Shown: positions 16,670-33,019 of the stretch, piece by piece
Layout: each line of letters opens with the position of its first letter
How positions within the stretch are numbered: the stretch's first letter is position 1
NCBI GenBank assembly: GCA_964019055.1
Contig: OZ025212.1
Location: 9,911,109-9,975,108 of the forward strand
Length of the DNA stretch: 64,000 nt
Reading direction: 5' to 3'
From: Anthopleura xanthogrammica
Lineage: Eukaryota > Cnidaria > Anthozoa > Actiniaria > Actiniidae
Translations under genes and position numbers: made by a program
The notes under the pieces: generated by a model
Databases searched by the model: none
Seen by the model: the letters and a program-made list of their open reading frames with translations, nothing else
Told to the model about the DNA's origin: nothing

Positions 16670-16674
16670 ACGTT
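16670..16674. repeat. Target-site duplication, left copy (ACGTT)
   Basis: ACGTT immediately precedes the left TIR (AGCAGC...) and is repeated immediately after the right TIR at 33020-33024. A 5-bp duplication fits a retroviral-type integrase; classic Polintons usually give 6 bp. Confidence 0.85.
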
Positions 16675-16885
16675 AGCAGCACTAGGGCTGGACCGCCACA
16701 GCCGTCAGGACAAAGCGGGTATTTCTGGCGTTTTACGGTCTCTGTGGGCACCATACATTTTGTGTGTCACGCCCCATGATATACGTCTGATATATGGATT
16801 TGTATGGCGAGCCTAGGAATTATAGCATAAAGAACCCACTATGGCCTTATCGTTGCTGCGGCGAGAGGATGCAAATAGAGGAAGA
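16675..16885 (+). repeat. Left terminal inverted repeat (211 bp)
   Basis: Matches the reverse complement of 32810-33019 with one 1-bp indel (TTGTGTGTCAC versus TTGTGGTCAC) and one A/G difference. It contains the start motif GATATATGG and the first 92 bases of the VLTF3-like gene, so both ends of the element carry the same promoter. Confidence 0.97.
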
Positions 16886-17342
16886 CACCTCGGCGCAGTG
16901 TTACGAATGTGGAAGGAATATACGCAATGCCGTACCTTGTGCTACCATGGAGCATTACTACGCTAACGGAGGCCGCAAGCGAACGCCTTACAAGAGACTA
17001 AGATACTTCAGGGAATGGATGGATCATATCAGAGGTTACCATCCCGTGTACTTTGATGAAAAATCAAAGAAGAAGATCATAGACAACTTAGAAGAGCCGA
17101 CTTTACGAGGCTTAAGAAAGACGCTTAAAAAATTAAGGCTAGGTAATTACAAAGGCATCTCCTACCTCCTGTCTGAGATTACCGGGAAAGAAATACCCGA
17201 CGTTTCTCAAGATATGCCTAGAGCCGAGTGGATGTTCAGCAGAATAAGTAAGGAAATTCCCTATTACCCTGACGTAATCTACGAAATATTCCACGAAATT
17301 GACCCCAACCACCCCCTCTTGGGATGGATTCCTAGAAAATAA
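16794..17342 (+). CDS. VLTF3-like late transcription factor
   Basis: 182 aa, intact. An N-terminal zinc-ribbon-like region has RCCGE (Cys21-22) and CYECG (Cys36, Cys39). It is followed by YKRLRYFREWM (residues 66-76), the core signature I associate with poxvirus/NCLDV late transcription factor 3 (YKR..HF.EW), then a helical C-terminal half. In nucleocytoplasmic DNA viruses VLTF3 drives late-gene transcription by the viral RNA polymerase. No RNA polymerase is encoded here, so it would have to work with a host or helper-virus enzyme. The start is fixed by GATATATGG overlapping the ATG. The first 31 codons lie in the TIR and are duplicated at the other end. The protein is shorter than most VLTF3 relatives. 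Confidence 0.65.
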   Translation: MDLYGEPRNYSIKNPLWPYRCCGERMQIEEDTSAQCYECGRNIRNAVPCATMEHYYANGGRKRTPYKRLRYFREWMDHIRGYHPVYFDEKSKKKIIDNLEEPTLRGLRKTLKKLRLGNYKGISYLLSEITGKEIPDVSQDMPRAEWMFSRISKEIPYYPDVIYEIFHEIDPNHPLLGWIPRK

Positions 17343-17656
17343 AAATGCAAAACTGGGGTGTGCTCATGCGAGCTTCCAAAACATTTCCTCTTCTTCACAA
17401 ACGAAAAGTAAATCGACTTCACGTCCTTCCTTAAGCAAATCTCTAAGTTTTGCGAGATCACTTCGGAATGATAAGAAACGTTTCTTATCCATGCCAGATA
17501 ACTTCGTGAGTTTCTAACGCGTTAGAATCGTCACCGATTTATTCCTTAAGAAACAGGTGGCTAAGTTTCTAACGCGTTAGAAAGTATTTGCATAATTTCT
17601 AGACAGACGTTCGATATGTAAACAAAAGCCTGAAGCAGTTTTCTCGCAGTGAATAT
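17343..17656. terminator. Convergent intergenic region with three perfect palindromes
   Basis: This gap lies between two converging genes. It holds GATAAGAAACGTTTCTTATC (17470-17489, perfect 20-bp palindrome), TTCTAACGCGTTAGAA (17512-17527) and TTTCTAACGCGTTAGAAA (17566-17583), the last two sharing a core. Possible roles are bidirectional transcript ends, a replication origin or protein-binding sites; position favours termination. Conventional polyadenylation signals are not obvious. Confidence 0.5.
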
Positions 17657-18248
17657 TTAATTCCTTAGTCTTTCTAATACCAAAGTCTTTGCCTCTTGGT
17701 ATATTTTTTTTCTTTCTTCTTCGGTCAGGTCTTTGACCATTTTTTTATTCCTAATCTCAGACTTAAGCTTTTCGTATTTATCTGCTTCGGCTAAGATAAG
17801 CGAGAATTCTACGTCGTCTATTCTACTGTCACGCAATGTCTTAGACGTTAGGTCAATGATGGTGTTACTTTTTGATTTCGCTAGCATGATGCTTCGGTCG
17901 TGTTTTGAGATCTTCGCGGATAATTTTTTCATTATGGCCGTACTAACAGCAGAGATAATTCCACAGACGGCCCCAACACTGGCCAAAGGAACACCAACGA
18001 CTACTCCCGGCCCCGTGAGAGATGTTGCGACTCCAGAACCAGTTAAGGCAACGGACAAGGAGCCTGTTGTTATTGCCACTTTGTGTAAGACGGCTCTGCC
18101 TCTGGCGTATTCTTACCTCTTCGTAGTGCTTGTTCTGGCCTTCAAGGTAAGCCAAAATTAGATTCGCCTTATTTAACCTAAAGTTTTCTGCTTCGTTTGG
18201 TTCCTTAGGCACCTCAGGGTACAAAGGCGCAGTAGGTGTCACGTCCAT
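17657..18248 (-). pseudogene. Glycine-rich membrane-type protein of unknown function, frameshifted
   Basis: The start is at 18248 on GTATATAATGGACG. The first segment begins MDVTPTAPLYPEVP and is followed by a charged helix. A one-base frameshift near 18108 (in GAGGTAAGAATACG) joins it to a segment with a Gly/Ala/Val-rich hydrophobic stretch (SGVATSLTGPGVVVGVPLAS) and a long Lys/Glu helical tail ending at 17657. About 195 aa if undamaged. The hydrophobic stretch could insert in a membrane. From memory, related proteins are common as 'hypothetical' predictions in cnidarian genomes; the function is unknown. GAGGTAAGA also looks like a splice donor, so an intron is a less likely alternative to a frameshift. 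Confidence 0.6.
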
Positions 18249-18260
18249 TATATACTAATG
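18246..18260. promoter_or_regulatory. Shared divergent start motif CATTATATACTAATG
   Basis: The minus-strand ATG (18246-18248) and plus-strand ATG (18258-18260) are separated by 9 bp of TATA-like sequence. No room exists for conventional separate promoters between the two genes. Confidence 0.6.
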
Positions 18261-19719
18261 TACGAGGGGTTTGAAGACAATGATGATTATGGTCTTTGGG
18301 AAGCTTTCAAGAAAGCCCTTCCGAATGCTGATTTTTCTAAGTTTATGCTTCGAGGCGAGACCATAGTTTACGTACCCACTGGGGAAGTTGCTTACAGGCC
18401 TTCTGACTTTAGGAAAGTAGTAAAGCATGCAGCTGTACCACCAAAATGGCCTAAGAAATTGTTGCTTGGTAACTCTAAGTACCCCAACCCCGCTGTGGCC
18501 TTTAGCGAGAGACTAAAGGACGACCTTACCCTAAGGATAAGGACTGGTAGCGATAGCTTCGTTGCCAAGATCAGAAACATCTTTACGGAGGTACCCGTTA
18601 CACATACCACGGCAAAGGAATCCCATGAGTGGTTGGCTGGACCCAACATGCGTTACTGGCCACAGCAATTAGGCTTTGCCGTTTGGTGTGCTACGAGCGG
18701 TTGTGGGGTGGGTATGGACCTTATGAAAAAACCAGTGTTTATGTTTCACTTTCACTTTACGGTGCGAAGAATTTTATATGAGATAGGAGCCCCACTTCCT
18801 GGAGATCAAAGATTTAACCCCAAGAACAACTACCATAACAAAGTTGCCATTGACAGGCTAAGGGCGGAGTTTGGTGCTAAAGAAGACTTCAGATACACCT
18901 ATGGTCTTAACAATGGATTAGGGTATGTTTGGGCTTATTGGGGAATAGGGGGTCATGAATGAACCCCAAAGGAAGTGTACACCCTCCGATTACAGTGGGA
19001 TACAGGATACCACACAGTAAGCTATGATGATTCGACGTTCTTTGAGCCTAACTCTAAGATCACGAAAAAAGTAAGAGATGGGCCTTTGTTTAAGGATGAG
19101 GGGGGTGTTTGTGCGGGTGCTAATCCTTTGATCAAATACATTAAGAATGAAAAAACTTCATACCCAAACAAAGCAAGGGCTTAACAAAAGCCGGTCTGGC
19201 AAGAATAAATAGGAGCATAGAAGCTCTTGTTTACTGCATCCTAGGTGCACAGGTAAACATGACGAGCAGCATTGTAGGCAACAGTGGGTCTGCGGAAGAA
19301 ACTCGCCAGCAATTCCAAGTCCTATTTGAGTCTGGGGTTATTGAGAATGATATTGCTAAGAGCATTCAAAGATACCAAATGGCCATACAGGAGGCTAAGG
19401 TAAGATTAGATTATGCCGTAGCACCCGGCTGTTGGCTAATGCCCAGCAATTTGGTAATAAACAGCCACGCCGTGGTGGGGTACAATAACAAGCTGCAAAG
19501 GGCCACAAAGGATATGAAACCTGGTGCTAACGAGATAAAGGAAGATACGACGCGTGGGATCCCACCGGTTAAGACAAAAAAGTGCATCTTTCACCGAAGA
19601 CGCCACCGCCCAAAGTTCCCAAAGAGCCTACGCCGACAAAAAAGACAGATGATCATGAGCTTCTAAAGGCTGGTTTAATAGTTGGAGGTCTTGGTCTGGG
19701 TTATTATATATGGCGATGA
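18258..19719 (+). pseudogene. Large conserved protein with C-terminal membrane anchor, multiply frameshifted
   Basis: Pieces in successive frames form one gene of about 485 codons. They are 18258 to about 18955 (with LGFAVWCATSGCGVG and FHFTVRRILYEIGAP), about 18975-19180, about 19185-19590 (with GLARINRSIEALVYC and KVRLDYAVAPGCWLMPSN), and a C-terminal part of about 120 bp. That last part is a Pro/Lys-rich linker and a hydrophobic anchor (LLKAGLIVGGLGLGYYIW), ending with a TGA at 19717 inside the next gene's start. I know similar sequences only as uncharacterised cnidarian proteins. A structural (minor capsid or membrane) role is a guess from position. The start is supported by the TATA-like motif shared with the divergent gene. 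Confidence 0.6.
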
Positions 19720-20168
19720 ACAACCCCTACATAGCTGGAGTAGATTGTGTTTATACCACTTACACAGGAGAAAAAAAATACAGTGCAGCTTCTTGGGTCG
19801 ACGTCACGGGGATGTCTGTGAACCTAAACTACTCAGGAAAGAAGCTTATTTTATGTAGCATTTGCTTGGGAACGGATAGTCATGCCAACGTAGGCTTTAG
19901 ATTCCTAGATGACAATTGAGTTCTTCAGCCTATGAGAACGAAGACTAACAACCGAGAACCCGTACACTTTTCTGTAGAGCTAAATCCATTCTCTGTTGAA
20001 AACTTAATGGTTTGCACTTTTCACATGGTCACAGACTGCCATGGAAAGGTAAAGCTGCAAGTGAGGGTTGATGACACTGGAAAGGTCACGGTGAATAGTA
20101 TAGAGGACCAAAGGGACGCAAAATATAACCATGCGACCATCAGCACTCTTACGGTGTTGAGTATATGA
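19710..20168 (+). pseudogene. Beta-rich small protein A (tandem paralogue), in-frame stop
   Basis: Starts at ATG 19710 on TTATATATGG. The first 69 codons (ASWVDVTGMSVNLNYSG, ILCSICLGTDSHANVGFRF) are followed by an in-frame TGA at 19917-19919. Translation then continues in the same frame (EPVHFSVELNPFSVENLMVC, VTDCHGKVKLQVRVDD) to 20168. Pattern and order parallel the next gene (W-D/S-TG...NVG.R..D.N...FHM...C), so they are tandem duplicates. The alternating strands suggest a jelly-roll or TNF-like fold, as in small virion surface proteins, but I do not recognise the family. Confidence 0.55.
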
Positions 20169-20712
20169 ACCCACACACGGGGGAAACTAGGTTCGTGCAT
20201 TATCTTGACGAAAAGGAGTACGCAAGCAATGATTGGTCCGACACTGGTCTGGAGGTGGAGGTCGGATGCTTGGGATTGGTCCTATGCACTATCAGCATTA
20301 ACACGTGGTATAATACCAATGTTGGGCTCAGGATCGCGGATGAGAATGACCAACGAAAAGCAATAGGCACTCTGCCCATTTTTCAGCGGAGGCTACTAAG
20401 ACAACTATGGAAGGCTTAACACCAGTAACTTTTCACATGATAGCTAATTGCCAACGTGCGAGGTTACAAATTAAGCCTGTGGGTGGTGCCGGTGTCGCAG
20501 TAAATCGCGCTACCTATCCATATGATAGTATTTGGAATCATAAGCCCATTTGCACCATGAGTGTCCTGCCTTTGGTTCCGAATTATCAGCCTGGGGCTAA
20601 CACCATCTTTACTTATCCGCAGTCAAGGATGCCAAGGAGCACGGATAAGCCTCCAAAGGAATACCCAGAGAAGATCAAGCCTTCATCTGCTTCAGGACCA
20701 CGGCGCCGATAG
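20165..20712 (+). pseudogene. Beta-rich small protein B (tandem paralogue), frameshifted
   Basis: ATG 20165 overlaps the previous gene's stop (ATGA) and lies on GAGTATATGAAC. The first frame gives WSDTGLEVEVGCLGLVLCT and NVGLRIADEN. A frameshift at the T-run near 20380 leads to the second (TPVTFHMIANC, RLQIKPVGGAGVAVN), ending with a Pro/Lys-rich tail at 20712. It is about 182 codons, somewhat longer than its neighbour because of the tail. The 3' end overlaps the convergent gene on the other strand by about 38 bp. Function unknown. Confidence 0.55.
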
Positions 20713-21983
20713 CGACGACAAGGATCCAAATGTTGTTGCCTACGAACTTTAACAGTTCTCCACCGGTCCTTAGGACTAAAGAAAGTACAGACCCAAGTAG
20801 CCCAGGGATGCTGGCGGCCATTTTCTTTCCTAAGGCGGTAAGGCCTTGGCCGACCTTTGCTACGCCATTGCCGACACCCTTAAAAAAAGTAAGGATGACT
20901 CCCACTACGCTGCTAATAGCCACTGCAAAGGCAAGGGGACGCCATACTTTAACAGGGCTCTATTTATTTTTTCCTTGGTGGTAAGGCCCAATTCCCTTTC
21001 CAGGTTATCCTTTTGCCCCCGTAATTCGGTTACCCTTTCCTGTAGGCCTTCATGCTCTTTCCTAGCTGCTTCCCTTTCCTCCTCTGTTTTTGTTTGGTCA
21101 TTAATGATTTCTTCTTTTTCCTGCAACTGCCGCTCTAAGTCTTCCAAGGCCTGGTCTCTTTGACGTACTTGCTCTTCCTTGGTGTTAATTTCCTTTAAGA
21201 GCTCTTCCCGTTCGTGTAAAGCACCTTCCATGGTCGTCTTAAGCCTACTCGCTTCTTCCCTAGACATTCCTAGGTCTTGCAGTGCAAGGTCTAATGCCCT
21301 ACGTGCCCTATGTCTTTCTGTGGTTAGCTCTGTCATTCTTTCGCGCATTTCGGCCTTTTCTCTTCCATGACCATCAAGTAGCAGCTTGTTTTGCTTTGCA
21401 TATTCTCTTTCTCTTTCTTGTAGTTCTTCTTCCAGCTCCGTTGCTCTTCTTTCGGCTGTAACGCGGGCATTAAGCTGTTCAAGTCTTTGCAGCAGACCTC
21501 CGATTGCGTCCCTAAGGCCCCGTAGGTTTCTTACTCTTTCTCTAACTTCCCCATCGTCGGTAAAGAGACGCTCTGGTTTCGTCCACTTGCCAGGTTGTTT
21601 TTGGTTTTCGAGTTGTATGTAAACTATATCATTTTTTTCAGATAGCTTTACTCGATCTAAGTTAAAGTTTTCATATAATTCCAAAAGACATTCCTGGGCG
21701 GCTTCGATGGGAGGCTTAAGGTAGCTTAGTAACGTCTCATTTTGCTCTAAGGCGTCAAAGGTTTTCATTTGCAAATACTCAGGAACTTGTTGCCGGGGTT
21801 ACGCGATTGCCACTTCCTTCTCATGGAATCCCAGACAGAGCGTGCCTTCTCACCAAACCGACCCCTGATCCTATCAAATAATCCTTGTGGGTCCGTGTTG
21901 TCGATAAGAGAGTCGTATTCGTCGTCGTTTATGTCTGCCTGCCCTTCTTCAGTCGTGGGGCCAAAATCTATTTCTCCTTCCAT
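20675..21983 (-). pseudogene. Acidic/coiled-coil/membrane protein, two frameshifts
   Basis: Starts at 21983 on CATATATGG. The N-terminal 70 residues are acidic (MEGEIDFGPTTEEGQADIND). After a frameshift near 21785 comes about 280 residues dominated by a long coiled coil (roughly 21450-20960, rich in Glu, Arg, Leu heptads such as LEDLERQLQEKEE). After another shift near 20940 the protein ends in a hydrophobic and Gly-rich domain (VVGVILTFFKGVGNG, IWILVVAIGAVVL) with one or two membrane segments. That tail otherwise lacks any start codon or TATA motif of its own, so I read it as the C-terminus of this gene. The layout suggests a stalk anchored to a membrane or membrane-active virion protein. 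This is inferred only. Confidence 0.5.
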
Positions 21984-21988
21984 ATATG
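21981..21988. promoter_or_regulatory. Palindromic divergent start CATATATG
   Basis: Minus-strand ATG (21981-21983) and plus-strand ATG (21986-21988) lie 2 bp apart in a perfect palindrome. The capsid gene and the coiled-coil gene therefore share one TATA-like core. Confidence 0.7.
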
Positions 21989-23233
21989 ATAAGCTCGAAA
22001 TTAGATCCGAACATCTTACCCCAGTGCACCGGCGGCCTAAAGGCAGAAAGAACCTTTCACAAGGTTACTTTCACGCCCTCCAGCGCAAAGCCAGGTGAGA
22101 CTTTATACGTAAGTGTTCCTACTTTAACAGAAAACCTACTGCTGGTCCCAAATACCCTCTCACTGCGTTTTGATCTTGCCGTGCAGCCCGATACAGCCGA
22201 CAAGCGATTCTGCGTGAATAACATTGCTCACAACATAGTGTCAAGGATGAAAGTGAAGTTTGCTGGCGAGTGCCTACTTGACCTCAACAGGTATGACTTG
22301 TACCACACCTACAAGGATTTGTTTATGTGGGACAAAGACAGGAACGAAAAAGTAGAATGGAGAATTGGGAGCGTAGATCTAAGAAAAATAAGAAGTGCTA
22401 CTAGCCCAGCCCCAACTAACCCCGAGGATGAAAATGCCATTAAGACGGCCTATGGGACAAAGTATGTGATTCCTTTGGATTTCGAAGTACTAACAACACA
22501 CGGGGTATTCTATCCAAGGGTGTTGGGCGCTGAAATGCAGTTCGAAGTAACCCTTGCCGACACTACGAACATCCTACAGCAGGGCGACAGCGATTCGGCT
22601 CTAACTAGTATTCACCAATACAGCATGACCAACCTAGAGCTGCAATACGAGACCATCCACAGCGACACCTTAGCAAGGAGTGCAATGGCTGAGTACTCTG
22701 CTGGCAAGGCATTCCTCTACGATCACGTGGTGCTCTATAAGACCTTCAGCTTCCTGGATAAGACAGACGAGTTAATCACGCAAACCGTGAATATTCCAAG
22801 GAGGAGTCTTACGGGGTTGCTGGTGCTCTTCTTAAAGCCATTTGAGGCAGGAAAGAGAGACTCTGAGGCCTTCTCTAACCCCAACATTACCAGCGTGGGC
22901 GTAAACGTGAATGGAGTCCCAAACAAAATCTACTCCCAAGGAATGAAACCCACGGACATTTACCGCGAGGTCATAAGAAGGTATGGTGATTTCATTAGCC
23001 CCACTAAGTTCTTTCATGGGAATGAGTATGCCCTATGGGTTGATCTACGTACGTCAGAGGACAATGACATCCACGGGCAAGGTCTAAAGCTGGTTAGCAC
23101 CCAAGATGGAGTCACCCTGGAAATCAAACGCACAAAGAATGGCAGCGCTAGAAATGACGACAAGTTCAACTGCTACGTCTTTGTCGTTGGCGACGCGCAA
23201 ATGAGCAACCAACTGAAGTCCATTGCATACTAA
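21986..23233 (+). CDS. Probable major capsid protein (double jelly-roll)
   Basis: 415 aa and intact, the largest undamaged gene of the element. Composition and segment pattern are of two beta-rich halves: an N-terminal half (TLYVSVPTLTENLLLVPNTL, HGVFYPRVLGAEMQFEVTL) and a C-terminal half (YKTFSFLDKTDELITQTVNI, NEYALWVDLRTSEDNDIHG). It ends with a short strand region, FNCYVFVVGDAQ. No enzyme motifs, signal peptide or membrane span are seen. This length and architecture fit double-jelly-roll capsids of Polintons, virophages and adintoviruses. The assignment leans on memory of cnidarian homologues and on the ATPase and integrase in the same element. Start on CATATATGATAAG. The next gene begins 17 bp after the stop. 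Confidence 0.6.
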   Translation: MISSKLDPNILPQCTGGLKAERTFHKVTFTPSSAKPGETLYVSVPTLTENLLLVPNTLSLRFDLAVQPDTADKRFCVNNIAHNIVSRMKVKFAGECLLDLNRYDLYHTYKDLFMWDKDRNEKVEWRIGSVDLRKIRSATSPAPTNPEDENAIKTAYGTKYVIPLDFEVLTTHGVFYPRVLGAEMQFEVTLADTTNILQQGDSDSALTSIHQYSMTNLELQYETIHSDTLARSAMAEYSAGKAFLYDHVVLYKTFSFLDKTDELITQTVNIPRRSLTGLLVLFLKPFEAGKRDSEAFSNPNITSVGVNVNGVPNKIYSQGMKPTDIYREVIRRYGDFISPTKFFHGNEYALWVDLRTSEDNDIHGQGLKLVSTQDGVTLEIKRTKNGSARNDDKFNCYVFVVGDAQMSNQLKSIAY

Positions 23234-23250
23234 AATATTCCTCCAATATA

Positions 23251-24083
23251 ATGATTCGCGCATTCCAAAACAAAGAATTGAACCTTACTCTGCAAACCAT
23301 AAAACAGATGAATTGTACTTTAAAGCAAAGGAGGCGGCCACCGTGCTTGGTTACCAAGACCCCAACAGCGCCATACAAAAGCACGTGCCCGATAAGCATA
23401 AGAAAAGCCTTCGTGAAATAGGTATGGCCAACTTGGCTGTACCTGGTAGCCAGCCGAATTCCCTGTGGGTTACAGAATCCGGTCTATATGCCCTCATCTT
23501 CAGGTCCAAGCTACCGGCAGCAGAAAAATTCCGCGACTGGGTCTTCGAAGAGGTATTGCCCAGCATCCGAAAGACAGGTAGATATACCCAGCAGATGTTC
23601 AAGATAGAGAATGAGTTTGACTTTCATAGAAAGGTAGTGGATTACATCCGTAGGTATTACCCTAGGCTGCTCTTTGTTGCGGGCCTAGGGGAGCTGCAGG
23701 ACACGAGCAGCAAGCGCATAAAGAGTTGGCAAAAGGGCTATCAGAAGGGGCAGCCGGACCTCATCATTACCAGTCATCATAAGCATTACGCAGGCTTCTG
23801 CTTGGAGCTCAAAAGCCCCAAGGGCAGTGGGGTGCTTTCCGATGCACAAAGTACGCTGCTGGGGCGATACGTCCAACAGGGCTATAAAGTTTTGGTGAGC
23901 AACGACTACGATGAAATCACCAGGGAAATAATGGACTACTGTCAAGGCCTACGCCTGCCGTGCACTTGCTGCCCCAAAAAGTTCCTGTCATGTGAAACTT
24001 TAGATTCGCACCTTACAAAATTTCATAGGATATATGAGGATCCTACAAGTGAAGTGGAGGGACCTGAAGAAAGAGAGCTTTAA
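23251..24083 (+). pseudogene. BRO-N / PD-(D/E)XK nuclease / zinc-finger fusion, early frameshift
   Basis: The start at 23251 (CCAATATAATGATTCGCGC) gives an N-terminal IRAFQNKELNLT. A frameshift near 23300 then enters the main frame. Residues about 20-110 form a BRO-N DNA-binding domain (ELYFKAKEAATVLGY, VTESGLYALIFRSKLPAAE, FRDWVFEEVLPSIRKTG). The next about 110 residues look like a VRR-NUC/PD-(D/E)XK nuclease (KGQPDLIITS, then FCLELKSPKGSGVLSDAQ supplying D...ExK and Q). The C-terminus has a C2H2 finger (CTCCPKKFLSCETLDSHL). BRO-N occurs in large DNA viruses and phages; with a nuclease and finger it would be a DNA-targeting enzyme. It overlaps the next gene by 50 bp. Confidence 0.75.
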
Positions 24084-24291: not shown

Positions 24292-24296
24292 AGGGG

Positions 24297-24652: not shown

Positions 24653-25222
24653 CTATTGTCTTGCCTTAAGACATAGCCATATGTGTTCTTCTTTCCTTAT
24701 TGCCCCACATCTGTTGCAGGGCTGTGTCCAATGGGGTTGGTTTTCCCATGGCACGCCTTCTATGAGGTCAAAGTATGGGGTGCCAAAGACCTCATCTATT
24801 TCCCTCTTTAGGCGCGTGAGCTCTAGGACCTGCTGGGGATGACACCTTTGTACTATATCGCCACACTTATAGCAAGGGATGTCCAAGTCATAAGACGTGT
24901 CGCACCTACGTTGGTGCCACTCCTTATCACCACAAAAGTGACCACAGATTTTCTTATGCATTTGCAGTTTCTGCTTACTACTAAGGGTTTTCTTACAGAA
25001 ATTACACGTGGTGTTTTTGTCTTTCTTACACACGGCATGCGTCAGGTGATACTGCAGCATCTGCCTACTGCTGAAAGACTTACCACAGTCCTTACATTCT
25101 TTGTTCTTTTCACACACCTTGTTTTGGGTGTGATAACGCAGCGCTTGCTTGCTGCTGAAATACTTTCCACACTTACACCCATGACACTTACATTTGAACT
25201 CAAGACATCCGTAGCACCTCAT
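24653..25222 (-). CDS. Multi-zinc-finger protein between inverted repeat arrays
   Basis: 189 aa from ATG 25222, chosen because GATATAATGAGG matches the element's start motif; 23 codons upstream are also open but lie in the repeat. Three tandem C2HC-type fingers share C-x(2)-C-x(3-5)-(Y/F/L)-S-S-(K/R)-Q-x-L-x(2)-H-x(4-5)-C (for example CGKSFSSRQMLQYH, CKKTLSSKQKLQMH). Extra Cys/His pairs follow, including CYKCGD and a final CNRCG. Likely a nucleic-acid-binding regulator or replication protein. It is flanked on both sides by inverted arrays of the same 64-bp unit, which could be its binding sites. The gene is intact. Confidence 0.7.
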   Translation of the reverse strand: MRCYGCLEFKCKCHGCKCGKYFSSKQALRYHTQNKVCEKNKECKDCGKSFSSRQMLQYHLTHAVCKKDKNTTCNFCKKTLSSKQKLQMHKKICGHFCGDKEWHQRRCDTSYDLDIPCYKCGDIVQRCHPQQVLELTRLKREIDEVFGTPYFDLIEGVPWENQPHWTQPCNRCGAIRKEEHIWLCLKARQ

Positions 25223-25255
25223 TATATCAAGGTGAATAAAATCACAATAAGAATT

Positions 25256-25515
25256 TAACCTTGTACCTATGGGGTTTGTACCTAGCCTCATTAAGAACTG
25301 AATAAAAATCTACCCTGGCACCTTGGACCTATGGAGTTCATTTCCAACCACCCTTAATGAGAACTAAATAAAACCTTAACCTTGCAGCTTAGGCCCGGAA
25401 GGCTAATCCCCAAATGCCTCATTAAGAACTAAATAATAATTTAACCTCGTACCTTGGACCCATGGGGTTTGTTCCCACCTAGCCTTAATGAGAACTAAAT
25501 AAAACTTTAACCTTG
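25256..25515 (-). repeat. Tandem repeat array of about 64-bp units, right (inverted) arm
   Basis: About five units, the reverse complement of 24297-24652. ACCTT or ACCTC marks recur at about 25257, 25321, 25380, 25443 and 25509. On the plus strand each unit contains TTAAGAACTAAATAAAA-like sequence. With the left arm it forms a large inverted structure around the zinc-finger gene. Confidence 0.85.
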
Positions 25516-25516
25516 G

Positions 25517-25669
25517 TTAGTCCAGGGTCCTTTGGGCCTTAGGGTCAGCTATGCATTGGTGCCGCTTACTTTCCTCATAGGTGTCGTTACAGTGTGAGCA
25601 CCTCGTCTTTTTCACTTTAGGTGGTACCATGACGCAGTCTCCTTACGGTTGTGTCGTAACGCAGTCCAT
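25517..25669 (-). pseudogene. Tiny zinc-knuckle protein, possible in-frame stop
   Basis: The start motif GATATATGGACTG gives ATG 25669, but codon 9 is TAA (25643-25645). The same frame continues from a second ATG at 25630 for 37 codons: MVPPKVKKTRCSHCNDTYEE, then KRHQC and a short tail to 25517. CSHC...HQC is a C2HC-like metal site. Either the gene is broken by the stop or translation starts at 25630. It lies 3 bp after the stop of the upstream minus-strand gene. Confidence 0.45.
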
Positions 25670-25672
25670 ATA

Positions 25673-25870
25673 TCATAAGGGAGCGCGCATGAAGTCCTTA
25701 ATCCACTCTTTGCCCCAGACTGCTAAGGTTAAGACAGCCCCTGCCCTTTTGGACATTTGGAGGTAGTGCTGGTCCTCCATGAGCTGCTCTACTTGCCATT
25801 CCAGGTCTTTAATCCTTTGTTCCAATTCTCTTTTCTTGTTTGCTATCGCATGCAGCGCCTCGACGTCCAT
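25673..25870 (-). CDS. Small coiled-coil protein (65 aa)
   Basis: Starts at 25870 on CATATATATGGACG. The N-terminal half is a short coiled coil (IANKKRELEQRIKDLEWQVE) and the C-terminal half is mildly hydrophobic (AGAVLTLAVWGKEWIKDF). Its stop TGA is directly followed by TATATGG of the next gene. Divergent from the packaging ATPase, with only 4 bp between start codons. Function unknown. Confidence 0.6.
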   Translation of the reverse strand: MDVEALHAIANKKRELEQRIKDLEWQVEQLMEDQHYLQMSKRAGAVLTLAVWGKEWIKDFMRAPL

Positions 25871-25877
25871 ATATATG
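25868..25877. promoter_or_regulatory. Palindromic divergent start CATATATATG
   Basis: A perfect 10-bp palindrome holds the minus-strand ATG (25868-25870) and plus-strand ATG (25875-25877) with ATAT between. It serves the coiled-coil gene and the packaging ATPase together. Confidence 0.7.
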
Positions 25878-26479
25878 AACCCCGAACATATTCCTTGCAA
25901 TGCTTTGATCGTGGGACCAACGGGCTGCGGAAAAACCCAATTCGTTGTAGAGCAACTGTATGGACCCTTCTTCCAAAGGTTTGACTATATCGTACTGCTA
26001 TGCCCCACCTACGTCAACAATAAGACCTGGAACAACGTTGGAAAAGAGGATGAAGACTTCTTCGTGGATGTGTTAGACCCCAATGACTTATCCAGTCACT
26101 TAAAGTTCTGGCACAAAACATTTCCCAAGGGCACAGAAGTGCTACTTATCTTGGACGACATTGCCTGCGGCGACGACTAAAAAAGAGGACCTTGGAGTTG
26201 GTAAAGTTAGCATTCAGCGGCAGGCATGACAAAATCTCTGTTTGGCTCCTTTCGCAGCAGCTGACCAGCGTAAGTAAGCCCTATAGGGAAAACATAGGTT
26301 CTTTGGTAGTGTTTTACACACCCAGTAAGAGTGACCTAGAGACAATCCTAAGCGACTATGGTGGGGAGATATCCAAGGAACAGCTGCATGCCTATATGCG
26401 CCACCTAAAGACGCGACCGCATTCTAAAATGATCTTCTCTTTGAGATATCCCTACGAAGTGAAAACCATTGGTTTTTAA
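25875..26479 (+). pseudogene. A32/FtsK-type genome packaging ATPase, frameshifted
   Basis: The start is on CATATATATGAAC. Walker A, GPTGCGKT, is at residues 14-21 and Walker B, VLLILDD, at about residues 89-95. The C-terminal part has VWLLSQQLTSVSKPYRENIG (a sensor-like Gln motif) and ends at 26479. A one-base deletion near 26178, in the A-run after GACGAC, creates a TAA straight after the Walker B region and puts the C-terminal 95 residues in another frame. About 200 aa in total, typical of Polinton/virophage packaging ATPases that pump DNA into double-jelly-roll capsids. Four bp separate its stop from the next start. Confidence 0.85.
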
Positions 26480-26483
26480 CTAT

Positions 26484-27028
26484 ATGGAGATTGATCAGCT
26501 AATAGAAGTGCCCACGCAGCTAGGAGAAGATGACCTTAAGGAACAACTCAACCTCCTGGTTTCTTCAGGGAAATGTAAGGAAATGATCGGTAAGGACCTT
26601 ACCCATGATCAGGTTAAGAACCTATCAGAAGAGGAAGTTAAGAGTACCACAAGCGCTATGAGGCCGCACTCGCTGCCAAAACTACAGACGCCGTAGCTGA
26701 CTCTGCCATTAAGCTCTGCACTAAGCTCCTTGGACTTGCACTACCCATAGACGACGTAGAGCAGCTGCAGAAGGACATAAGAGAGGACTATGTCATTGCC
26801 CAAGAACTTAAGATAACTTGTGGGTGGTTGTCTTTGAAGTGTGGTAAGTTAATGGCCGTAGCTAGCGTTGCCCTGCACGTCGCCCAACACCTTGACTTGA
26901 AAGAACTCGCAACGTCTTGGAAGGACTTTAAAAGGTCAAAGCTTGAGCCAGGTCGATCCCAAGTAATTGAGCAGGTCGCATCAAGTCAGCCTCAAGTACT
27001 TGATCAAGTCACCCCAAGTCATTCCTAG
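26484..27028 (+). pseudogene. Alpha-helical protein of unknown function, frameshifted
   Basis: Start ATG 26484 on CTATATGG. The N-terminal 55 codons are acidic and helical (LGEDDLKEQLNLLVSSGKC, DLTHDQVKNLSEEEVK). A frameshift near 26641 leads into a second frame, open to 27028, with YHKRYEAALAAK, CTKLLGLALPIDDVEQLQKD and a hydrophobic helix, KLMAVASVALHVAQHL. The last 35 codons fall in a direct repeat of CAAGTC-type words that continues past the stop to about 27077. From memory, similar proteins accompany such ATPases in cnidarian genomes; the role is unknown. Confidence 0.55.
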
Positions 27029-27077
27029 GTCGTTATCAAGTCATCCCTAAGTCGTTATCAAGTCACTTGTCAAGTCC
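26960..27077 (+). repeat. Short CAAGTC-type direct repeats
   Basis: CAAGTC or CAAGTA recurs about ten times at 8-22-bp spacing, including two adjacent 22-bp units (TCGTTATCAAGTCA...). It spans the 3' end of the upstream gene and the gap before the next start. Confidence 0.6.
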
Positions 27078-27085
27078 TTAGATAT

Positions 27086-27577
27086 ATGAGTGACACTGAG
27101 CAACCCGTAGAGTCCACCCCTCCCCCATCTCGCTCGGAGCCTGAGAAAATTACCAAGCCTAAGGCCCCAGGCAGAGTGGCCGCGGGAAAGAAGCTGGCAG
27201 AGATGAATAGGAAGAATAAGGCAAAGAAAGAAAAAAGAGAAGAGCCTACTAATTGGGACGTCAACCCCGGATATGTCATAGGCGGCCTGGGTCTGGCCAT
27301 TGCCGCAGGTAGCCTTTATTTGCAGTACAAACAATCACCACCTCCTAAACCTACACCTAGACCCGTAACACCAAAGAGTAAGATTCCATTCCAAGCAGCC
27401 ATTCTTACTTCTATTGTTGCAGCTGTAGGTTGGGTAGGTAAGAAGGCCCTAAAGGAAACCTTTACTGGCGACCCAAGCAGCAGCGTCATGAATTACGCAA
27501 AGATGACCGCTGCAGTTGCAGGCAGCATTGCCCTCAAGGACTACCTGCAAAAGGAAAAGTACATCCCAAATATATAA
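27086..27577 (+). CDS. Membrane protein of unknown function (163 aa)
   Basis: Starts at 27086 on GATATATGAGTG. The N-terminal 60 residues are basic and Pro/Lys-rich, then come two hydrophobic segments (VIGGLGLAIAAGSLYLQY, AILTSIVAAVGWVGK) separated by a Pro-rich linker. A third short Ala-rich stretch lies near the C-terminus. It ends with TAA sharing its A with the next ATG (TAATG). Intact. Likely a virion or membrane-associated protein; family not recognised. Confidence 0.6.
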   Translation: MSDTEQPVESTPPPSRSEPEKITKPKAPGRVAAGKKLAEMNRKNKAKKEKREEPTNWDVNPGYVIGGLGLAIAAGSLYLQYKQSPPPKPTPRPVTPKSKIPFQAAILTSIVAAVGWVGKKALKETFTGDPSSSVMNYAKMTAAVAGSIALKDYLQKEKYIPNI

Positions 27578-28011
27578 TGGTAAGCGTTGTTGCTGGTGGT
27601 GTTATTGCAGCTTTAGCTTTTACGGGAGCTAATTATGGTGGTAGATACTTGGATCGCCTTGTCCATGGTAAAAACGACTTAGCCGCCGAAAGGAAAAGGC
27701 ATGACTTAGCCATGGAGGCTTACGAAAGAGACGTTGAGGCTTGGAATGAGAAAAGAAAAGCCTATCAGGATTGGTTGGATAAGAACTACAGGGACAAGGT
27801 GCAGGCTGACAAAAACTTTGAGAACACTGACTATGCCTTTAAGCTTTATGCCCAGGCTCACCCAGGCTCGCTCGGAGCTCGCGACGAGAACCTTAGGAAA
27901 CCGCAGTTCAAGAATTACTACCAGCCATCAAAAAGGCAAAAAAATAGCGAACTGATATTCGTGGGGGTTGCAGGACTGGCCATCGGAGGTGCCGTAGCCT
28001 ATTTAATATAA
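27577..28011 (+). CDS. Membrane protein with charged helical core (144 aa)
   Basis: ATG 27577 overlaps the upstream stop, within AATATATAATGG. An N-terminal hydrophobic segment (VVAGGVIAALAFTGANYGG) and a C-terminal one (LIFVGVAGLAIGGAVAYLI) bracket a charged helical region (ERKRHDLAMEAYERDVEAW), a hairpin-like topology with both ends in a membrane. The stop TAA again overlaps the next start. Intact; unknown function. Confidence 0.6.
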   Translation: MVSVVAGGVIAALAFTGANYGGRYLDRLVHGKNDLAAERKRHDLAMEAYERDVEAWNEKRKAYQDWLDKNYRDKVQADKNFENTDYAFKLYAQAHPGSLGARDENLRKPQFKNYYQPSKRQKNSELIFVGVAGLAIGGAVAYLI

Positions 28012-28631
28012 TGATCGTCTTTTTGGAAGGTAAGAATAACTTTACCACGTACTTAAACCCACCCATCCGGGCGCATTGGGTTCGCCTCGTAAGTTGCTCT
28101 TTGTACAATTCTTGGCATAATTTGATCAATGGCATGCTCACAGCGCACAAAGGTGGCAAATATCAAGGCGTAATGCTACCCGATGAGCATTACACCCTAA
28201 TCACCCTGGCCAAGGAATTAGCAAAGCACGGCTATGTTCTCACCACGGGATTGCCCCACGAAATGACTATCAAGCATACCCTGCCCAATGATTTTTCAGT
28301 AAGACTTGGAAAGCATGATGCGTTGGGATCTTTGCTTGGAATCCAAGACAAGGCGGTTACCAACACGGCCATTCCTGTAAATTGGAAAGTCCCTAGCAGC
28401 TACGAAGTTTATTGCAACTTGGTCCACAGCTACCATGGTAAGCCCTCTCACTTGATGTCCAAGTTCCCGCCCAAGGGCAACCCCTTTGACCTGGTAGAAT
28501 ATGCCCCCATCTGTTTGCATTAAGATCTATCTTGCGATCTGGTGTCAGAAATAAGCATCACCATTAAAGTGGATGGAGAGACAGTGGACTTCAACGGGCA
28601 CCAGACTAATCTCGTCTTGGAATTCATATAA
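28011..28631 (+). pseudogene. Candidate penton/minor capsid protein, in-frame stop
   Basis: ATG 28011 lies on AATATAATGATC. The first 170 codons (NFTTYLNPPIRAHWVRLVSC, MLPDEHYTLITLAKELAKH, SVRLGKHDALGSLLGI) end at a TAA at 28521-28523. The same frame continues for 36 more codons with ISITIKVDGETVDFNGH and LVLEFI to TAA 28629. The strand-rich continuation matches the style of the rest, so the first stop is probably a lesion. About 206 codons in total suit a single-jelly-roll penton, which Polintons pair with the capsid protein and ATPase. The assignment is by size, composition and neighbourhood only. Confidence 0.4.
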
Positions 28632-29583
28632 ATGGGACGCGTCGAGGAGAAACTTAAGAGAATCTATTATGGGCCCCAAGGCTATTGGAAAGGAGCATCG
28701 GCTATTAAGAAACTCGCTGCAGCAGCCAGGGTATCGGAGGAAGTGACTAAGGATTGGCTAAAAAAACAAACCATCTTGCAGGTTTATCTTCCCGTGCCCA
28801 GGTATATTCCTAGGCCCTGTTTCACCGTTAATGCTCCAAATGAAGTTCATCAGGCGGATTTGCTTTTCTTACCGCACGACAAGGTGAAAAGAAAGACCTA
28901 TAAATATGCTTTGACCGTTGTGGACATCGCGAGCAGATACAAAGACGCCGAACCCCTCAGCACTAAAGATTCCCAGGAAGTTGCGGAGGCCCTCAGTAAG
29001 ATTTATAAGCGCGTCTTGCAATGGCCCAAGCTGCTGCAGGTGGATGCGGGGACAGAGTTCATGGGCTGTCACTAAGACGTTGAAAGACCACGACACCAAA
29101 GTCAGAAAAGCCGAGGCAGAGTACCACAGGGGCCAAAGCATCGTCGAAAGACTTAATAAGACCTTAGCCAAGCGCCTCTTTGGGTACCAGTATTGGAAAG
29201 AATTGGACTCGACTGACAGGAATAGGGAGTGGGTGCAAAGACTGCCAGATGTCGTCGCCGCGCTCAACAACGAAGAAACGAGAGTCACGCGAATGAAACC
29301 CAAGGATGCCATAAGAAGAAAACACGTCAAGCACGAGTCCTACATCAGAAGCTCAAGAGCGGTGGGATTGAAAGAAAAAAAGTTACCCCGCGACATTGTA
29401 GTCAGATACCTGTATCAACCGGGGGAATTGGAGGGCGGCAGTAAGAGAGCCACGGACCCTAACTGGTCTCTGGAAACGTATGCGATCGCAAAGTCCGTCA
29501 CCAAGAAAGGGCAGCCCGTCTTGTATTACTTAACAGATGGCCCAAGCCGTGGATTCGTCAAAGAAGAGCTACTCATAGTGTAG
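28632..29583 (+). pseudogene. Retroviral-type (rve) DDE integrase, frameshifted
   Basis: ATG 28632 on CATATAAATGGG, one base after the upstream stop. The rve core has Asp76 in EVHQADLLFL, Asp138 in LLQVDAGTEFMG and the catalytic Glu in HRGQSIVERLNKTLA, all present. A one-base deletion near 29070 introduces a stop after GTEFMG and shifts the rest. The C-terminal part has a chromodomain/SH3-like region (WSLETYAIAKSV, PVLYYLTDGP). This enzyme would insert the element and make the short target duplication. It overlaps the convergent polymerase gene by 11 bp. Confidence 0.9.
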
Positions 29584-32500
29584 CTGCCCCACGCGTTCTA
29601 TTGCAGTCCAAGCATGTCAAGCGTATGTTACCTCTCTGGTGGCCTTTCTTATTATTGAGGCGATCTACGGAAAACTGCTGGTCGTCGTTCGCGTCGAAAC
29701 TCCACAGCAGTGGTATGTTGCACTTCGCACAACGCGCACCTTTCTTATAGATGTCGTCAACACATAGGTCAAACTCCCTATTTTTTTGTTCGTCTTGCTG
29801 CTTGTACCGCAACAGCTTTTTCCTGATGTTCTCCTTGGCTATGTCTGGGGTCGTGTTGTCGTAGCGCAGCTGTGGTGCCCATGCTCTTTTGAGCTGGTGG
29901 GCATACTCCACCCTGGTAACGGCAGTGTAGATGAGGTTGCTCCAACATAGGCGCTGGTCTATGATCCAGAGGTTTTCCCTAACGGTTAGGCCCTGGGCAC
30001 TGTGGACGGTCATGCAGTAGCCCAAGCGCCAGTCGGGGTGTGATATTACCTTCTCTACTACTTCTATGCTTACCCAGGCCCTGTCGTGGGTAATGGCATT
30101 CTCTAGGGCAACATTAGTGTAAGGAACCGTGATGTTTTTCTTTTGGTTGCGGGTGTCTCTAGGTTTGTAAGAGACGGGCGCCAGCTCCTGGGCGTATTTT
30201 TCCCTATGGACCCGCAGTAGGTCCTTTTGTATCCTGGATTGCCCTGCTCTCCTGCTACTAAGCACAAGGTCCTTTGGGTGCCACTCCTGTAGGAATTTTT
30301 CATAACTGCGCGCCCTAAGGTTTTCGCGCATTACCTTACACTGCCCCACGTCACTTATGCCCCGCAGTGCCTTCTTTAGTTTTCTGACGTGGTCCTTGCT
30401 GCGGTAGTCAGCATTTATTTCCTCACTGTAAAAGCTTTGAAGCCATTCGTGGGGCATTTCACCTGCTATGGGTGGTGGCTGGCATGGGTCACCGGCGAAG
30501 ATGACCTGCGTCTTACCGCGTAGGAACTCCACCAGCTCCTGCAATAGTTCCAAAGGCACCGTACATATCTCATCCCATAGTATTACCTTGGGTATGTCTT
30601 TAATGGCCTCTGGTACCCACTTTTCCCCCTTAAAGTGGAAGAGGCTATGCCATGTCTGTGCGTCGTGACCCATGCTGCGGAGCTCTCTTTCCAGGCGATG
30701 GGTTGGTGTTAAGACCCTTATTTGGGGGAAGGTTCTTAGGACCCTAGTCGTCTTTCCACTACCCCCCGTGCCATAAAGGTAGCTGAACCTATGGTAGCTT
30801 ATGGGGTCGGTAGCCGAAGGCAGTAGCTCTGTCGTTGGGGTGGTGCTGCCGTGCGTGTGGGTACCTTCGTATGTTACCCTCTGGCGCCATGCTCTGATTT
30901 CCTCATCCTTTATGCGCCACTGTCCGCTTTCTGCTAGTTCATCGGCTGTGTAATATTGCTTTATCCTTTGTAATGCCTCTGGTCTTACGTAGAGGCTGTC
31001 TGTGGCAACCCTGGGTATGTCGTCTTTGTCAAAGCGCAGGAGCATGGATAGCAGGCTTATGTGTGCATAGGCCAACATGCTGGCCTGCAGGTGGTAATAT
31101 TGCGCCTTATGCTCATGGTAGTAGCAGAGTATGTGGTAGGAATCCGTTACCTCATCTTCTTCGATTACGCTTACCTCTTGGGCATGTACCATTGTTCCTT
31201 CCTCGTGGGCCCGCTTTATTAGGAAGTTCAGCTCCTCATCGTCGATTACCAACCGCCGTTGCATGTGTTTCTCACCCATTCTTGCTCCTTGCGTAAACGT
31301 ACCTATTACTATGCGGGCCGTGTGGTTATCCGAAGGCAGCCACTGGGTCTTAGTGCTGTGGCAAAGAATAGCTTCGTGCGCAGTGTATGTTAGCAGCCCA
31401 CTTTCTTCAAAGAACTTCAGTAGGGGTATGGGCAACCAACCCCTTTCCTGTAAGTGCTTCCCATACCAAGCGTAAATGATAGGATGCAGGCCCTCCTTGA
31501 GCTCCCAGGTGGTTAACTTTACAAACCCCGTGGCATCAATATTATACGTACCCGGCAAAGACACCCTAAAGAACAATCCCCGAGGCCTTTGAAGCTGGCG
31601 GGATAACAATGCTTCATGTCCAGAGACACGTAGTGTTCCTTGTCGTACTCCATATTCCACAGCCCTCTGTGTCCGTGCTCAACGCAAGCAAGAGCAATGT
31701 CTTTGAAATCGTTAGGCGTTGATTTCCAGCCATTTCTCTTTTTTGTGGCCATGAAGTCCAACCCATTGCTACTAAAGACGTCGTCTCCGAAGTTTTCACC
31801 CAACTCCGCGCATAAGGCTTTGATCTTCTTATCTTCTGCCTCTGGACAGTATAATACGCCCGCTTGCGTAATGAATTGCTTTCCTACCTCATCCAATAAC
31901 CAGATAGAGTTTTCCCTTATGAAGTCGTAGGTTAGTGGTTCGCCTTCATAGACTCTTACTTCTTTCTTCTTTGGAAACTTCGCTTCTCGCCAGGCGTGAC
32001 CATTATGCTGGTAAATCTTGATAGGCGACCCTTTGCTGGCATACTTCGTAGTTCCGGGGTAGATTTCCCCACCCATGATGTCCATAACTATGATTCTTCT
32101 TTGTATCATTGGCTCCAGCATCTTTATGGCTTCGATGGTACCACCACATCTTTGCGTGTTTTTCTCCCATTTACGTATTGCCTTTCTGCGTTCGTCGGTT
32201 AGCTTACCGCCCCTGGTAGAGTCGCTAAAGAACTCACGCACAAGCTTAGCAACGCAATTACCCGGGTGTCGCATAGGCTTAAGCTTCTTAGCATCAGGCT
32301 CCTTTATCCTATAGGCGGAGTAAATGACCACCGAAACGGGGTAGGCAACATCATAGTAAAGGGAATCTATGCCCACTAGGGCGCCTGGCCTCGTATCCTT
32401 GTTCAACTTAAATAGGGCGCTACGGTTACTATTTCTTATGGGATGACGACCCCTTTCTATTGACCATTGACCGTTAGCTTCTCTGATAAATGTTACTTCC

Positions 32501-32676
32501 AGGCGGTAGTCACCAGCAGGTAAGTTCTTAATAATGTCTTCTGCTCTTTCCATGGTCATAGTTGCATCCGTGTTGCCCTCAGTAAACGTCGTAAAAGCAA
32601 AGTCGCCGTCTTGCAAGACCTTATTCCTAAGGCTTCGTATTTTCTTGTCTTTGATCTCGGGCAGGTTCCGGTCCAT
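29573..32676 (-). pseudogene. Family-B-like DNA polymerase fused to SF1 helicase and HNH domain, frameshifted
   Basis: About 1,030 codons from ATG 32676 (GTATATATGGACC). The N-terminal about 330 residues are not assigned and I see no clear 3'-5' exonuclease motifs. The polymerase palm has motif A, SLDMKHCYPASF (near 31620), and motif C, RVATDSLYV (near 31000); the Asp before Ser, the catalytic one, is kept, while the first Asp of the usual DTDS is Ala. A frameshift near 31570 (GGGG run) separates the two. A RecD/Pif1-like SF1 helicase follows: GTGGSGKT (near 30770), VILWDEICTVP, VIFAGDPCQPPP, MTVHSAQGLTV and LIYTAVTRVE. The last 60 residues are an HNH-type zinc domain (CAKC, FSVDRLNNKKGH, CLDCNRTRG). 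Likely replicates the element. Confidence 0.8.
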
Positions 32677-32793
32677 ATATACATACAAATATTTTATGCT
32701 TGATATGGATCGCATCTACTCTCACTCGTACTCATAACGTAATTCCACCAAAACGGATGCATAAACTCCGCCCTAACACAGCCGCACCTATCC

Positions 32794-32901
32794 TCATGGA
32801 CTCGCATCATCTTCCTCTATTTGCATCCTCTCGCCGCAGCAACGATAAGGCCATAGTGGGTTCTTCATGCTATAATTCCTAGGCTCGCCATACAAATCCA
32901 T
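32794..32901 (-). pseudogene. TIR-encoded duplicate of the VLTF3 N-terminus (35 aa)
   Basis: The right TIR repeats the motif GATATATGG and the first 31 codons of the VLTF3-like gene, with Ile12 changed to Met. After the TIR ends the frame meets a stop at 32794. Probably a by-product of TIR extension into the gene; it could also act as a promoter firing into the polymerase gene, which follows on the same strand. Confidence 0.7.
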
Positions 32902-33019
32902 ATATCAGACGTATATCATGGGGCGTGACCACAAAATGTATGGTGCCCACAGAGACCGTAAAACGCCAGAAATACCCGCTTTGTCCTGACGGCTGTGGCG
33001 GTCCAGCCCTAGTGCTGCT
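32810..33019 (-). repeat. Right terminal inverted repeat (210 bp)
   Basis: Reverse complement of 16675-16885 with two differences; ends GCTGCT at the target duplication. Confidence 0.97.

What the first reader, a model, noticed from the sequence alone, without database searches (positions are those of the whole stretch)
16794..32901. Every gene of the Polinton-like element starts on a TATA-like motif touching the ATG
All 18 start codons, plus the TIR duplicate, sit on ATATATG, ATATAATG or a close variant. Plus strand: 16794, 18258 (TATATACTAATG), 19710, 20165, 21986, 23251, 24034, 25875, 26484, 27086, 27577, 28011 and 28632 (TATAAATG). Minus strand: 18248, 21983, 25222, 25669, 25870, 32676 and 32901. 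The TATA core lies 0-5 bases from the ATG, too close for a standard host TATA box with a leader. Poxvirus late promoters (TAAATG) and ASFV late promoters overlap the start codon in this way, and this element encodes a VLTF3-like late factor. I infer a self-contained late-transcription signal producing near-leaderless mRNAs.
Basis: partly seen in the sequence, partly recalled or inferred. Interest (0 to 1): 0.88.

Follow-up and report, generated by a model that had tools for sequence, protein, structure and literature searches.

The report
Start-codon TATA promoters throughout a Polinton
In a virus-like mobile element present in several copies in one eukaryotic genome, all 19 recognised gene starts sit on a TATA-type sequence that overlaps or almost touches the start codon; this is likely a virus-style "late" start signal giving messages with almost no leader, and would mean that viral rather than ordinary host machinery is predicted to switch the element on.

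Summary
In same-family copies 124 of 125 start/copy pairs with an in-frame ATG keep the motif, though start codons moved and flanks changed. A gene start missing from the window carries it in 12 of 12 loci. Three divergent gene pairs share one TA core between their start codons. A second, larger Polinton family in the same genome lacks it at 10 of 10 starts examined and showed no VLTF3 match: the signal is family-specific and goes with the VLTF3-like gene. Best reading: a late-type initiator overlapping the ATG, as in poxvirus TAAATG or the ASFV late TA(+1)TA, predicted to be read by a pox/asfar-type RNA polymerase with help from the element's VLTF3-like protein. No polymerase family was found in 29 scanned ORF pieces, so "self-contained" is not supported; a helper virus is likelier. 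No transcript data were available.

The parts
16674..16885 (+). left terminal inverted repeat; carries the start and first codons of the VLTF3-like gene
   Evidence: 99-100% complementary arms; 5-bp TSD ACGTT
32810..33020 (-). right terminal inverted repeat; carries the duplicate start 32901-
16790..16796 (+). ATATATG, start of VLTF3-like gene 16794-17342
   Evidence: VLTF3:
18246..18260 (.). shared start element CATTATATACTAATG of divergent genes 18248- and 18258+
   Evidence: copies
19706..19712 (+). ATATATG, start of gene 19710 (reading frame interrupted later)
   Evidence: 9 of 9 copies
20162..20167 (+). TATATG, start of gene 20165; three copies have an insertion just upstream and ATATATG at the ATG
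   Evidence: 9 of 9 copies
21981..21988 (.). palindrome CATATATG holding both start codons of divergent genes 21983- and 21986+ (major capsid protein, 415 aa)
   Evidence: 6 of 6 copies; MCP:
23246..23253 (+). ATATAATG, start of BRO-N / VRR_NUC gene (frame interrupted)
   Evidence: 2 of 2 copies
24030..24036 (+). ATATATG, start of 85-aa gene 24034-24291
   Evidence: 3 of 3 copies; 4 at locus edges dropped
25220..25227 (-). ATATAATG, start of C2H2-like gene 25222-24653
   Evidence: 5 of 6 rows; 1 without ATG
25667..25673 (-). ATATATG, start of small gene 25669- (early stop in this copy)
   Evidence: 6 of 7 rows; 1 without ATG
25868..25877 (.). palindrome CATATATATG holding both start codons of 25870- and 25875+ (A32-like packaging ATPase)
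   Evidence: ATPase:
26481..26486 (+). TATATG, start of gene 26484
   Evidence: 8 of 8 copies; 1 at locus edge dropped
27082..27088 (+). ATATATG, start of gene 27086 (in this copy fused with a second gene that has its own start motif in other copies)
27571..27579 (+). TATATAATG, start of gene 27577
   Evidence: 6 of 6 copies
28006..28013 (+). ATATAATG, start of gene 28011-28523
   Evidence: 7 of 7 copies
28627..28634 (+). TATAAATG, start of rve integrase gene (frame interrupted)
   Evidence: 6 of 7 rows; 1 without ATG
32674..32680 (-). ATATATG, start of replication gene reading to 29573 (SF1 helicase domain in its 3' part; interrupted)
   Evidence: DNA polymerase B part recognised from recall only
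32899..32905 (-). ATATATG, TIR duplicate of the VLTF3 start, opens only a short frame

Best explanation
Every recognised gene of this Polinton-family element starts on a TATA-type sequence that overlaps or lies within three bases of its ATG, and this sequence is likely the gene's own late-type transcription initiator, predicted to be read by a pox/asfar-type RNA polymerase supplied from outside and probably aided by the element's VLTF3-like protein. Shown: the sequence, its concentration at starts, its retention in same-family copies, its sharing by divergent start codons, its absence from the starts examined in the second family. Inferred: that it acts on DNA as an initiator, with transcription beginning at an A of the TATA 0-8 bases before the ATG (near-leaderless mRNA, possibly with extra AU repeats from slippage); that all genes then form one expression class; that the polymerase comes from a co-infecting large DNA virus, since none was found in the element; and that the VLTF3-like protein adapts that polymerase to these sites.
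For: At starts: 11 of 11 ATATATG and 5 of 5 ATATAATG in the element are on listed starts. Retention: of 132 evaluable start/copy pairs 122 have the motif, 2 have it at another in-frame ATG, 7 have no usable ATG, 1 has an ATG without it; 67 of the 122 differ from the window in the 12 bases before the ATG. Pooled identity over 110 alignment rows is 79% at -10..-6, 91% at -5..-1, 84-87% at +5..+24. Motif follows the start: VLTF3 start 11-12 codons further in, at GTGTGATATATG and close variants, in copies; insertion before 20165 with ATATATG at the ATG, and ATATATAATG vs GATATAGATG at 27577. A solitary 48%-identical VLTF3-like gene has TATATAATG at its ATG. Divergent pairs leave 2, 4 and 9 bases between start codons; the core of the third changes length in copies yet stays. 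No second motif upstream: at -40..-10 no column exceeds 0.38 bits. VLTF3 and motif occur together in one family, and neither was found in the other. Precedent: TAAATG in poxviruses; ASFV late TA(+1)TA with median 9-nt leaders and AU/AUAU slippage at ATA (passages).
Against: No transcript was seen. No polymerase was found in the element and no helper is known; endogenous large-virus genes in this genome could not be searched (tool unanswered). Poxvirus TAAATG itself occurs at 1 of 20 starts. In ASFV and poxviruses a class of genes carries the late signal; here all do, replication gene and integrase included. The VLTF3/motif association rests on two families. Copies are related, so retention is partly recency: 55 of 122 pairs have the same 12-base flank, including nearly all at the MCP, ATPase, 28011 and integrase starts. 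Rows are not fully de-duplicated by physical copy and include six VLTF3 rows aligned across a replaced start region. The 32676 start could not be tested in copies.
Confidence: 0.55

Rival explanations
1. Ordinary host RNA polymerase II promoters: the motif is a TATA box or AT-rich core and the host transcribes the element.
For: TATATA is a good TATA-box sequence (recalled); the element sits in chromosomes; no viral polymerase family was found in it.
Against: A TATA box places the start about 25-30 bases downstream, past the ATG; no other element is seen at -40..-10; divergent genes have 2-9 bases between their ATGs; the second family in the same nucleus does without it.
Confidence: 0.17
2. A translation-level signal: AUAU before AUG helps ribosomes start or restart on long multi-gene mRNAs.
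For: The motif always includes or abuts the ATG; genes 27086, 27577 and 28011 are packed with overlapping stop and start codons.
Against: Spacing to the ATG varies (TATATG, TATAATG, TATAAATG, TATAGATG, TATATACTAATG); at 27577 all 6 copies read TATAG-ATG, so the TAATG stop/start overlap of the window is not kept while TATA is; solitary and divergent genes have it too; I recall no precedent.
Confidence: 0.13
3. Another DNA-level role: a site for a regulator or silencer, or TA-rich replication slippage that happens to persist at starts.
For: The core is palindromic and its length varies like a slipping TA repeat.
Against: Slippage would not restrict the motif to start codons (0 of 547 other ATGs have ATATATG) or re-form it at moved starts.
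Confidence: 0.07
4. No current function: the motif is the relic of one promoter cassette spread by recent copying.
For: Copies are closely related (ATPase 94-100% aa) and several genes are broken.
Against: The motif spans many non-homologous genes and survives in start regions whose alignments to the window are 67-80% identical and in a 48%-identical VLTF3 gene.
Confidence: 0.08

Closest known systems
ASFV late promoters (initiator TA(+1)TA)
   Same: TATA at the initiation site, start codon a few bases away, AT-rich; ASFV late leaders median 9 nt with AU/AUAU slippage (PMC7163114 passages); TATATA mainly 0-20 bp from the ATG in asfarvirus and kaumoebavirus (PMC5974111 passages)
   Different: ASFV encodes its polymerase and has a separate early class; here all genes carry it, divergent ATGs share it, and no polymerase was found
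Poxvirus late promoters (TAAATG)
   Same: initiator overlaps the start codon (PMC3061580, PMC11423596 passages); VLTF3 is named as a poxvirus late transcription factor (PF04947)
   Different: core is TATA not TAAAT (1 of 20 starts reads TATAAATG); no polymerase found in the element
Virophages and endogenous mavirus-like elements (EMALEs)
   Same: small integrating virus-like elements with type-specific promoter motifs; mavirus TCTA corresponds to the CroV late motif, other types carry other motifs (PMC8547959 passages)
   Different: no helper known here; the motif includes the ATG itself; VLTF3-like gene encoded
Yeast cytoplasmic linear elements pGKL1/2
   Same: one short promoter per gene, very short leaders, slippage at the start site (PMC6831550 passages)
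   Different: they use ATNTGA with the transcription start 13-25 nt downstream and encode a pox-like polymerase; nothing conserved upstream here
Polintons/Mavericks of other hosts
   Same: TIRs, rve integrase, capsid protein, A32-like ATPase
   Different: I saw no promoter signal for non-virophage Polintons in the search listings or in passages of PMC12220804 and PMC8097293; most listed papers were not opened

Membership tests
Polinton/Maverick | terminal inverted repeats and short target duplication | tested here: met
   TSD 5 bp ACGTT where 6 bp is usual (recalled)
Polinton/Maverick | retroviral-type integrase | tested here: met
   rve PF00665, 33.1 bits vs cut-off 32.6
Polinton/Maverick | major capsid protein and A32-like packaging ATPase | tested here: met
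   window MCP 16.1 bits vs Capsid_N cut-off 24, its second-family homologue 25.1; ATPase N-terminal piece Pox_A32 20.1 bits, C-terminal piece 24.2 bits vs cut-off 22.8
Polinton/Maverick | protein-primed DNA polymerase B | tested here: inconclusive
   no polymerase profile matched the pieces; an SF1 helicase domain did; the polymerase part rests on recall
VLTF3 family | match to PF04947 and VLTF3 fold | tested here: met
   14 of 14 aligned members match at E <= 0.01, best 7e-9; window protein below the gathering cut-off; 16 of the 22 best Foldseek viral hits are named VLTF3-like or late transcription factor, but TM about 0.3-0.6, rmsd mostly 8-20 A, model pLDDT 67; no PDB match
Poxvirus late promoter | TAAAT(G) at the start codon | tested here: not met
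   TATAAATG at 1 of 20 starts
ASFV-type late initiator | TATA at the transcription start with a short leader | tested here: inconclusive
   TATA at 20 of 20 starts; transcription start not mapped
[quoted passage not shown]
   TATA at the ATG; no motif at -40..-10; transcription start not mapped
Virophage-like satellite | promoter equal to that of a helper virus | not testable with these tools
   no helper known; host-genome family search unanswered
pGKL-type element | ATNTGA upstream sequence before each start, own RNA polymerase | tested here: not met
   no conserved column at -40..-10 (ATNTGA itself was not searched for); no polymerase family

The most novel reading that the evidence does not exclude
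This Polinton family is a virophage-like satellite living in a eukaryotic genome: all its genes form one late class fired by the RNA polymerase of an unknown large DNA virus at start-codon-overlapping, often two-way TATA palindromes, yielding leaderless AUAU-tailed mRNAs, with its own VLTF3-like factor as the adaptor; the sister family, with other start-adjacent sequences and no VLTF3 found, is tuned to a different polymerase or helper.
Probability: 0.3. Interest if true: 0.88.

Novelty: new variant of a known kind. Interest (0 to 1): 0.76.

Why it matters
How integrated Polintons are expressed is, to my knowledge, poorly known. An ATG-overlapping initiator on every gene, family-specific and accompanied by a VLTF3-like gene, gives a direct prediction: leaderless, possibly AU-extended mRNAs made by a viral-type polymerase. 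If right, Polintons in this host depend on, or descend from, virus-type transcription and may be satellites of an undiscovered large DNA virus. It also gives a practical rule for finding true gene starts in decayed elements: in same-family copies, 69 of 90 motif ATGs open 60 codons or more against 330 of 1997 other ATGs.

Tried and rejected
Relatives in IMG/VR: none confirmed with the MCP, an MCP alignment or a VLTF3 alignment. Solved structures for VLTF3: no meaningful match by sequence or fold. Terminators and poly(A) signals: AATAAA, TTTTTNT and T7 positions were listed but showed me no regular link to gene ends; not tested statistically. A baculovirus-like TAAG signal (recalled) in the second family: within 12 bases of the ATG at 4 of the 10 starts by eye, too few to claim. 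The pooled count (128 motif, 8 none, 8 no ATG, of 144) was replaced because its ATG choice failed at locus edges and it included non-family VLTF3 fragments. Host identity was not determined. The 32676 start had no copies in the count; two near-identical rows keep TATATA with the ATG changed. The first count of the extra gene (10 loci) used an exact anchor; with another word found 12 loci. Three loci that should cover the region (L002, L008, L038) did not hold that word and were not examined further.
Full report
What is there. The window lies in a 290-Mb assembly of a eukaryote that I did not identify. The element runs from 16674 to 33020, between inverted terminal repeats, with a 5-bp ACGTT duplication. 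It encodes a VLTF3-like protein, a major capsid protein, a BRO-N/VRR_NUC protein, a C2H2-like protein, an A32-like ATPase, an rve integrase, an SF1 helicase domain in a long replication gene, and several small proteins. The polymerase part of the replication gene is my recognition from recall; no profile matched it. Many genes are interrupted. Nine ATPase loci at 94-100% identity, window included, make up its own family; 76 further ATPase matches at up to 49% identity belong to other Polintons, chiefly one second family.

The observation. Each of the 20 listed ATGs was read with its upstream sequence. ATATATG occurs 11 times in the element on both strands and ATATAATG 5 times, always at a listed start. 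TATA within 12 bases including the ATG: 20 of 20 against 20 of 547 other ATGs. Information is concentrated at -4 to -1 (0.56, 0.81, 1.01, 0.96 bits), with a weaker T preference at -9/-8 (0.44, 0.74) and nothing above 0.38 bits from -40 to -10. Because starts may have been chosen by eye for the motif, I looked for independent support: eight starts align at or near their N-termini (first aligned residue 1-19) with homologues of the second family or of single divergent copies; 18258 aligns only from residue 62, so it supports the start loosely. The other ten gene starts have no such independent check.

Divergent pairs. 21983-/21986+ share CATATATG, 25870-/25875+ share CATATATATG and 18248-/18258+ share CATTATATACTAATG. 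Two, four and nine bases lie between the start codons. In copies the third pair is unchanged or reads CATATATATATG, CATATATATACTAATG, CATATATATACATATG or CATATATATATATATG: the core changes length but stays a TA run between two ATGs. One copy (L069) shows no left start codon there and keeps ATATATACTAATG. The first pair is the same in 6 of 6 copies.

Copies. In the final count, 137 start/copy rows were found; 5 at locus edges were dropped. Of 132, 122 have the motif at the nearest in-frame ATG, 2 at another in-frame ATG, 7 have no usable in-frame ATG, and 1 (L015, VLTF3, upstream sequence unlike the other copies) has an ATG without it. In 67 of the 122 the 12 upstream bases differ from the window; in 55 they are the same and so say little. 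Most telling are places where the start region changed: the VLTF3 start lies 11-12 codons further in and sits in GTGTGATATATG, GTGTAATATATG or GTGTCATATATG; three copies carry an insertion before 20165 and still have ATATATG at the ATG; 27577 reads ATATATAATG in the window but GATATAGATG or ATATAGATG in the copies. Pooled identity dips to 79% at -10..-6 and rises to 91% at -5..-1 (110 rows, not fully de-duplicated). Upstream flanks from -60 to -26 are 93-95% identical and mostly code for neighbours, so only the near flank is a fair comparison.

Between the genes of 27086 and 27577 the other copies have a further gene. In 12 of 12 loci outside the window that hold the region's marker word (7 physical copies) it starts on ATATAATG; it runs 69 codons in 10 loci, is cut by the locus end in one and stops at 23 codons in one (first seen). 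In the window its start is gone and its frame is fused to 27086. Over the same-family loci searched, 69 of 90 ATGs bearing the motif open 60 codons or more, against 330 of 1997 other ATGs.

Other families. The second family has AT-rich but different sequences before its starts (for example GATAAAGTAAGA-ATG, CAATAAATAAGA-ATG); 0 of 10 starts, taken from four loci of different copies, have the motif. The VLTF3 search found no match in its elements, by inspection of the places listed at E <= 0.001; a more distant homologue would be missed. A solitary VLTF3-like gene 48% identical has TATATAATG at its ATG. One divergent copy (L073) has ATATATAATG at the 18248 homologue but AATATAAGATG at the 18258 homologue. 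So the motif is a trait of this lineage, not of the host nor of these protein families, and it goes with the VLTF3-like gene, though on two families only.

The VLTF3-like protein. Nineteen homologues were found, 13 with precomputed PF04947. All 14 members of the alignment match PF04947, best 7e-9; the window's own protein is below the curated cut-off. The model has modest confidence (pLDDT 67) and its superpositions are poor, yet 16 of its 22 best viral fold matches are named VLTF3-like or late transcription factor proteins of giant viruses.

How it likely works. Shown: a start-codon-touching TATA on each gene, kept under change. Inferred: it is a DNA-level initiator. A Pol II TATA box would put the start inside the gene; divergent pairs leave no room for separate promoters outside the neighbour's coding sequence; nothing else is conserved upstream. 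The nearest working models are poxvirus late TAAATG (PMC3061580 and PMC11423596, passages; Rosel 1986 seen as a reference title) and the ASFV late initiator TA(+1)TA, whose late mRNAs have median 9-nt leaders, with AU or AUAU extensions at ATA starts (PMC7163114, passages). No RNA polymerase family matched in 29 ORF pieces, so I infer an outside viral polymerase with the VLTF3-like protein as helper; mavirus-type elements give the precedent of promoters matched to a helper and differing between element types in one host (PMC8547959, passages). The helper step is the weakest.

Limits. No RNA evidence, no same-family DNA from other species (searches found none), no answer from the host-genome search for capsid family PF04451. 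Novelty: in the listings I saw no such signal for Polintons other than virophages; I read passages of only a few of those papers (PMC12220804 has no occurrence of "promoter", PMC8097293 two unrelated ones).

Noticed in passing
24306-24652 and 25237-25520: Two arrays of about 62-66-bp repeats in opposite orientation flank the C2H2-like gene 25222-; several units hold TTTTTATT/AATAAA.
   Followed up: partly
43652-59325 and 59526-64000: Satellite arrays of a 329-bp unit, 99% matches, with consensus units in opposite orientations, about 200 bp apart.
   Followed up: no
L082 (G000 C3:2493500-2501000), ORF 6559-7086 minus: A solitary open VLTF3-like gene (48% identical); the other five ORFs of 70 aa or more in this 7.5 kb do not look like element genes by eye: possibly retained alone.
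   Followed up: partly
27086-27577: In this copy the frame is a fusion of two genes that are separate in other copies.
   Followed up: yes
L042, L055, L076, L077, L083, L084: An abundant second Polinton family (most of the 76 further ATPase matches, many with 212-codon open frames) with its own AT-rich start-adjacent sequences such as GATAAAGTAAGA-ATG; comparing two copies, integrase and MCP seem to start back to back about 40 bp apart.
   Followed up: partly
L023, L024, L025 (C7:9301725, 8664149, 8855388): Short TIR/VLTF3-start fragments 98-99% identical to the window's element ends recur on the same contig, suggesting recent end-only duplications.
   Followed up: no
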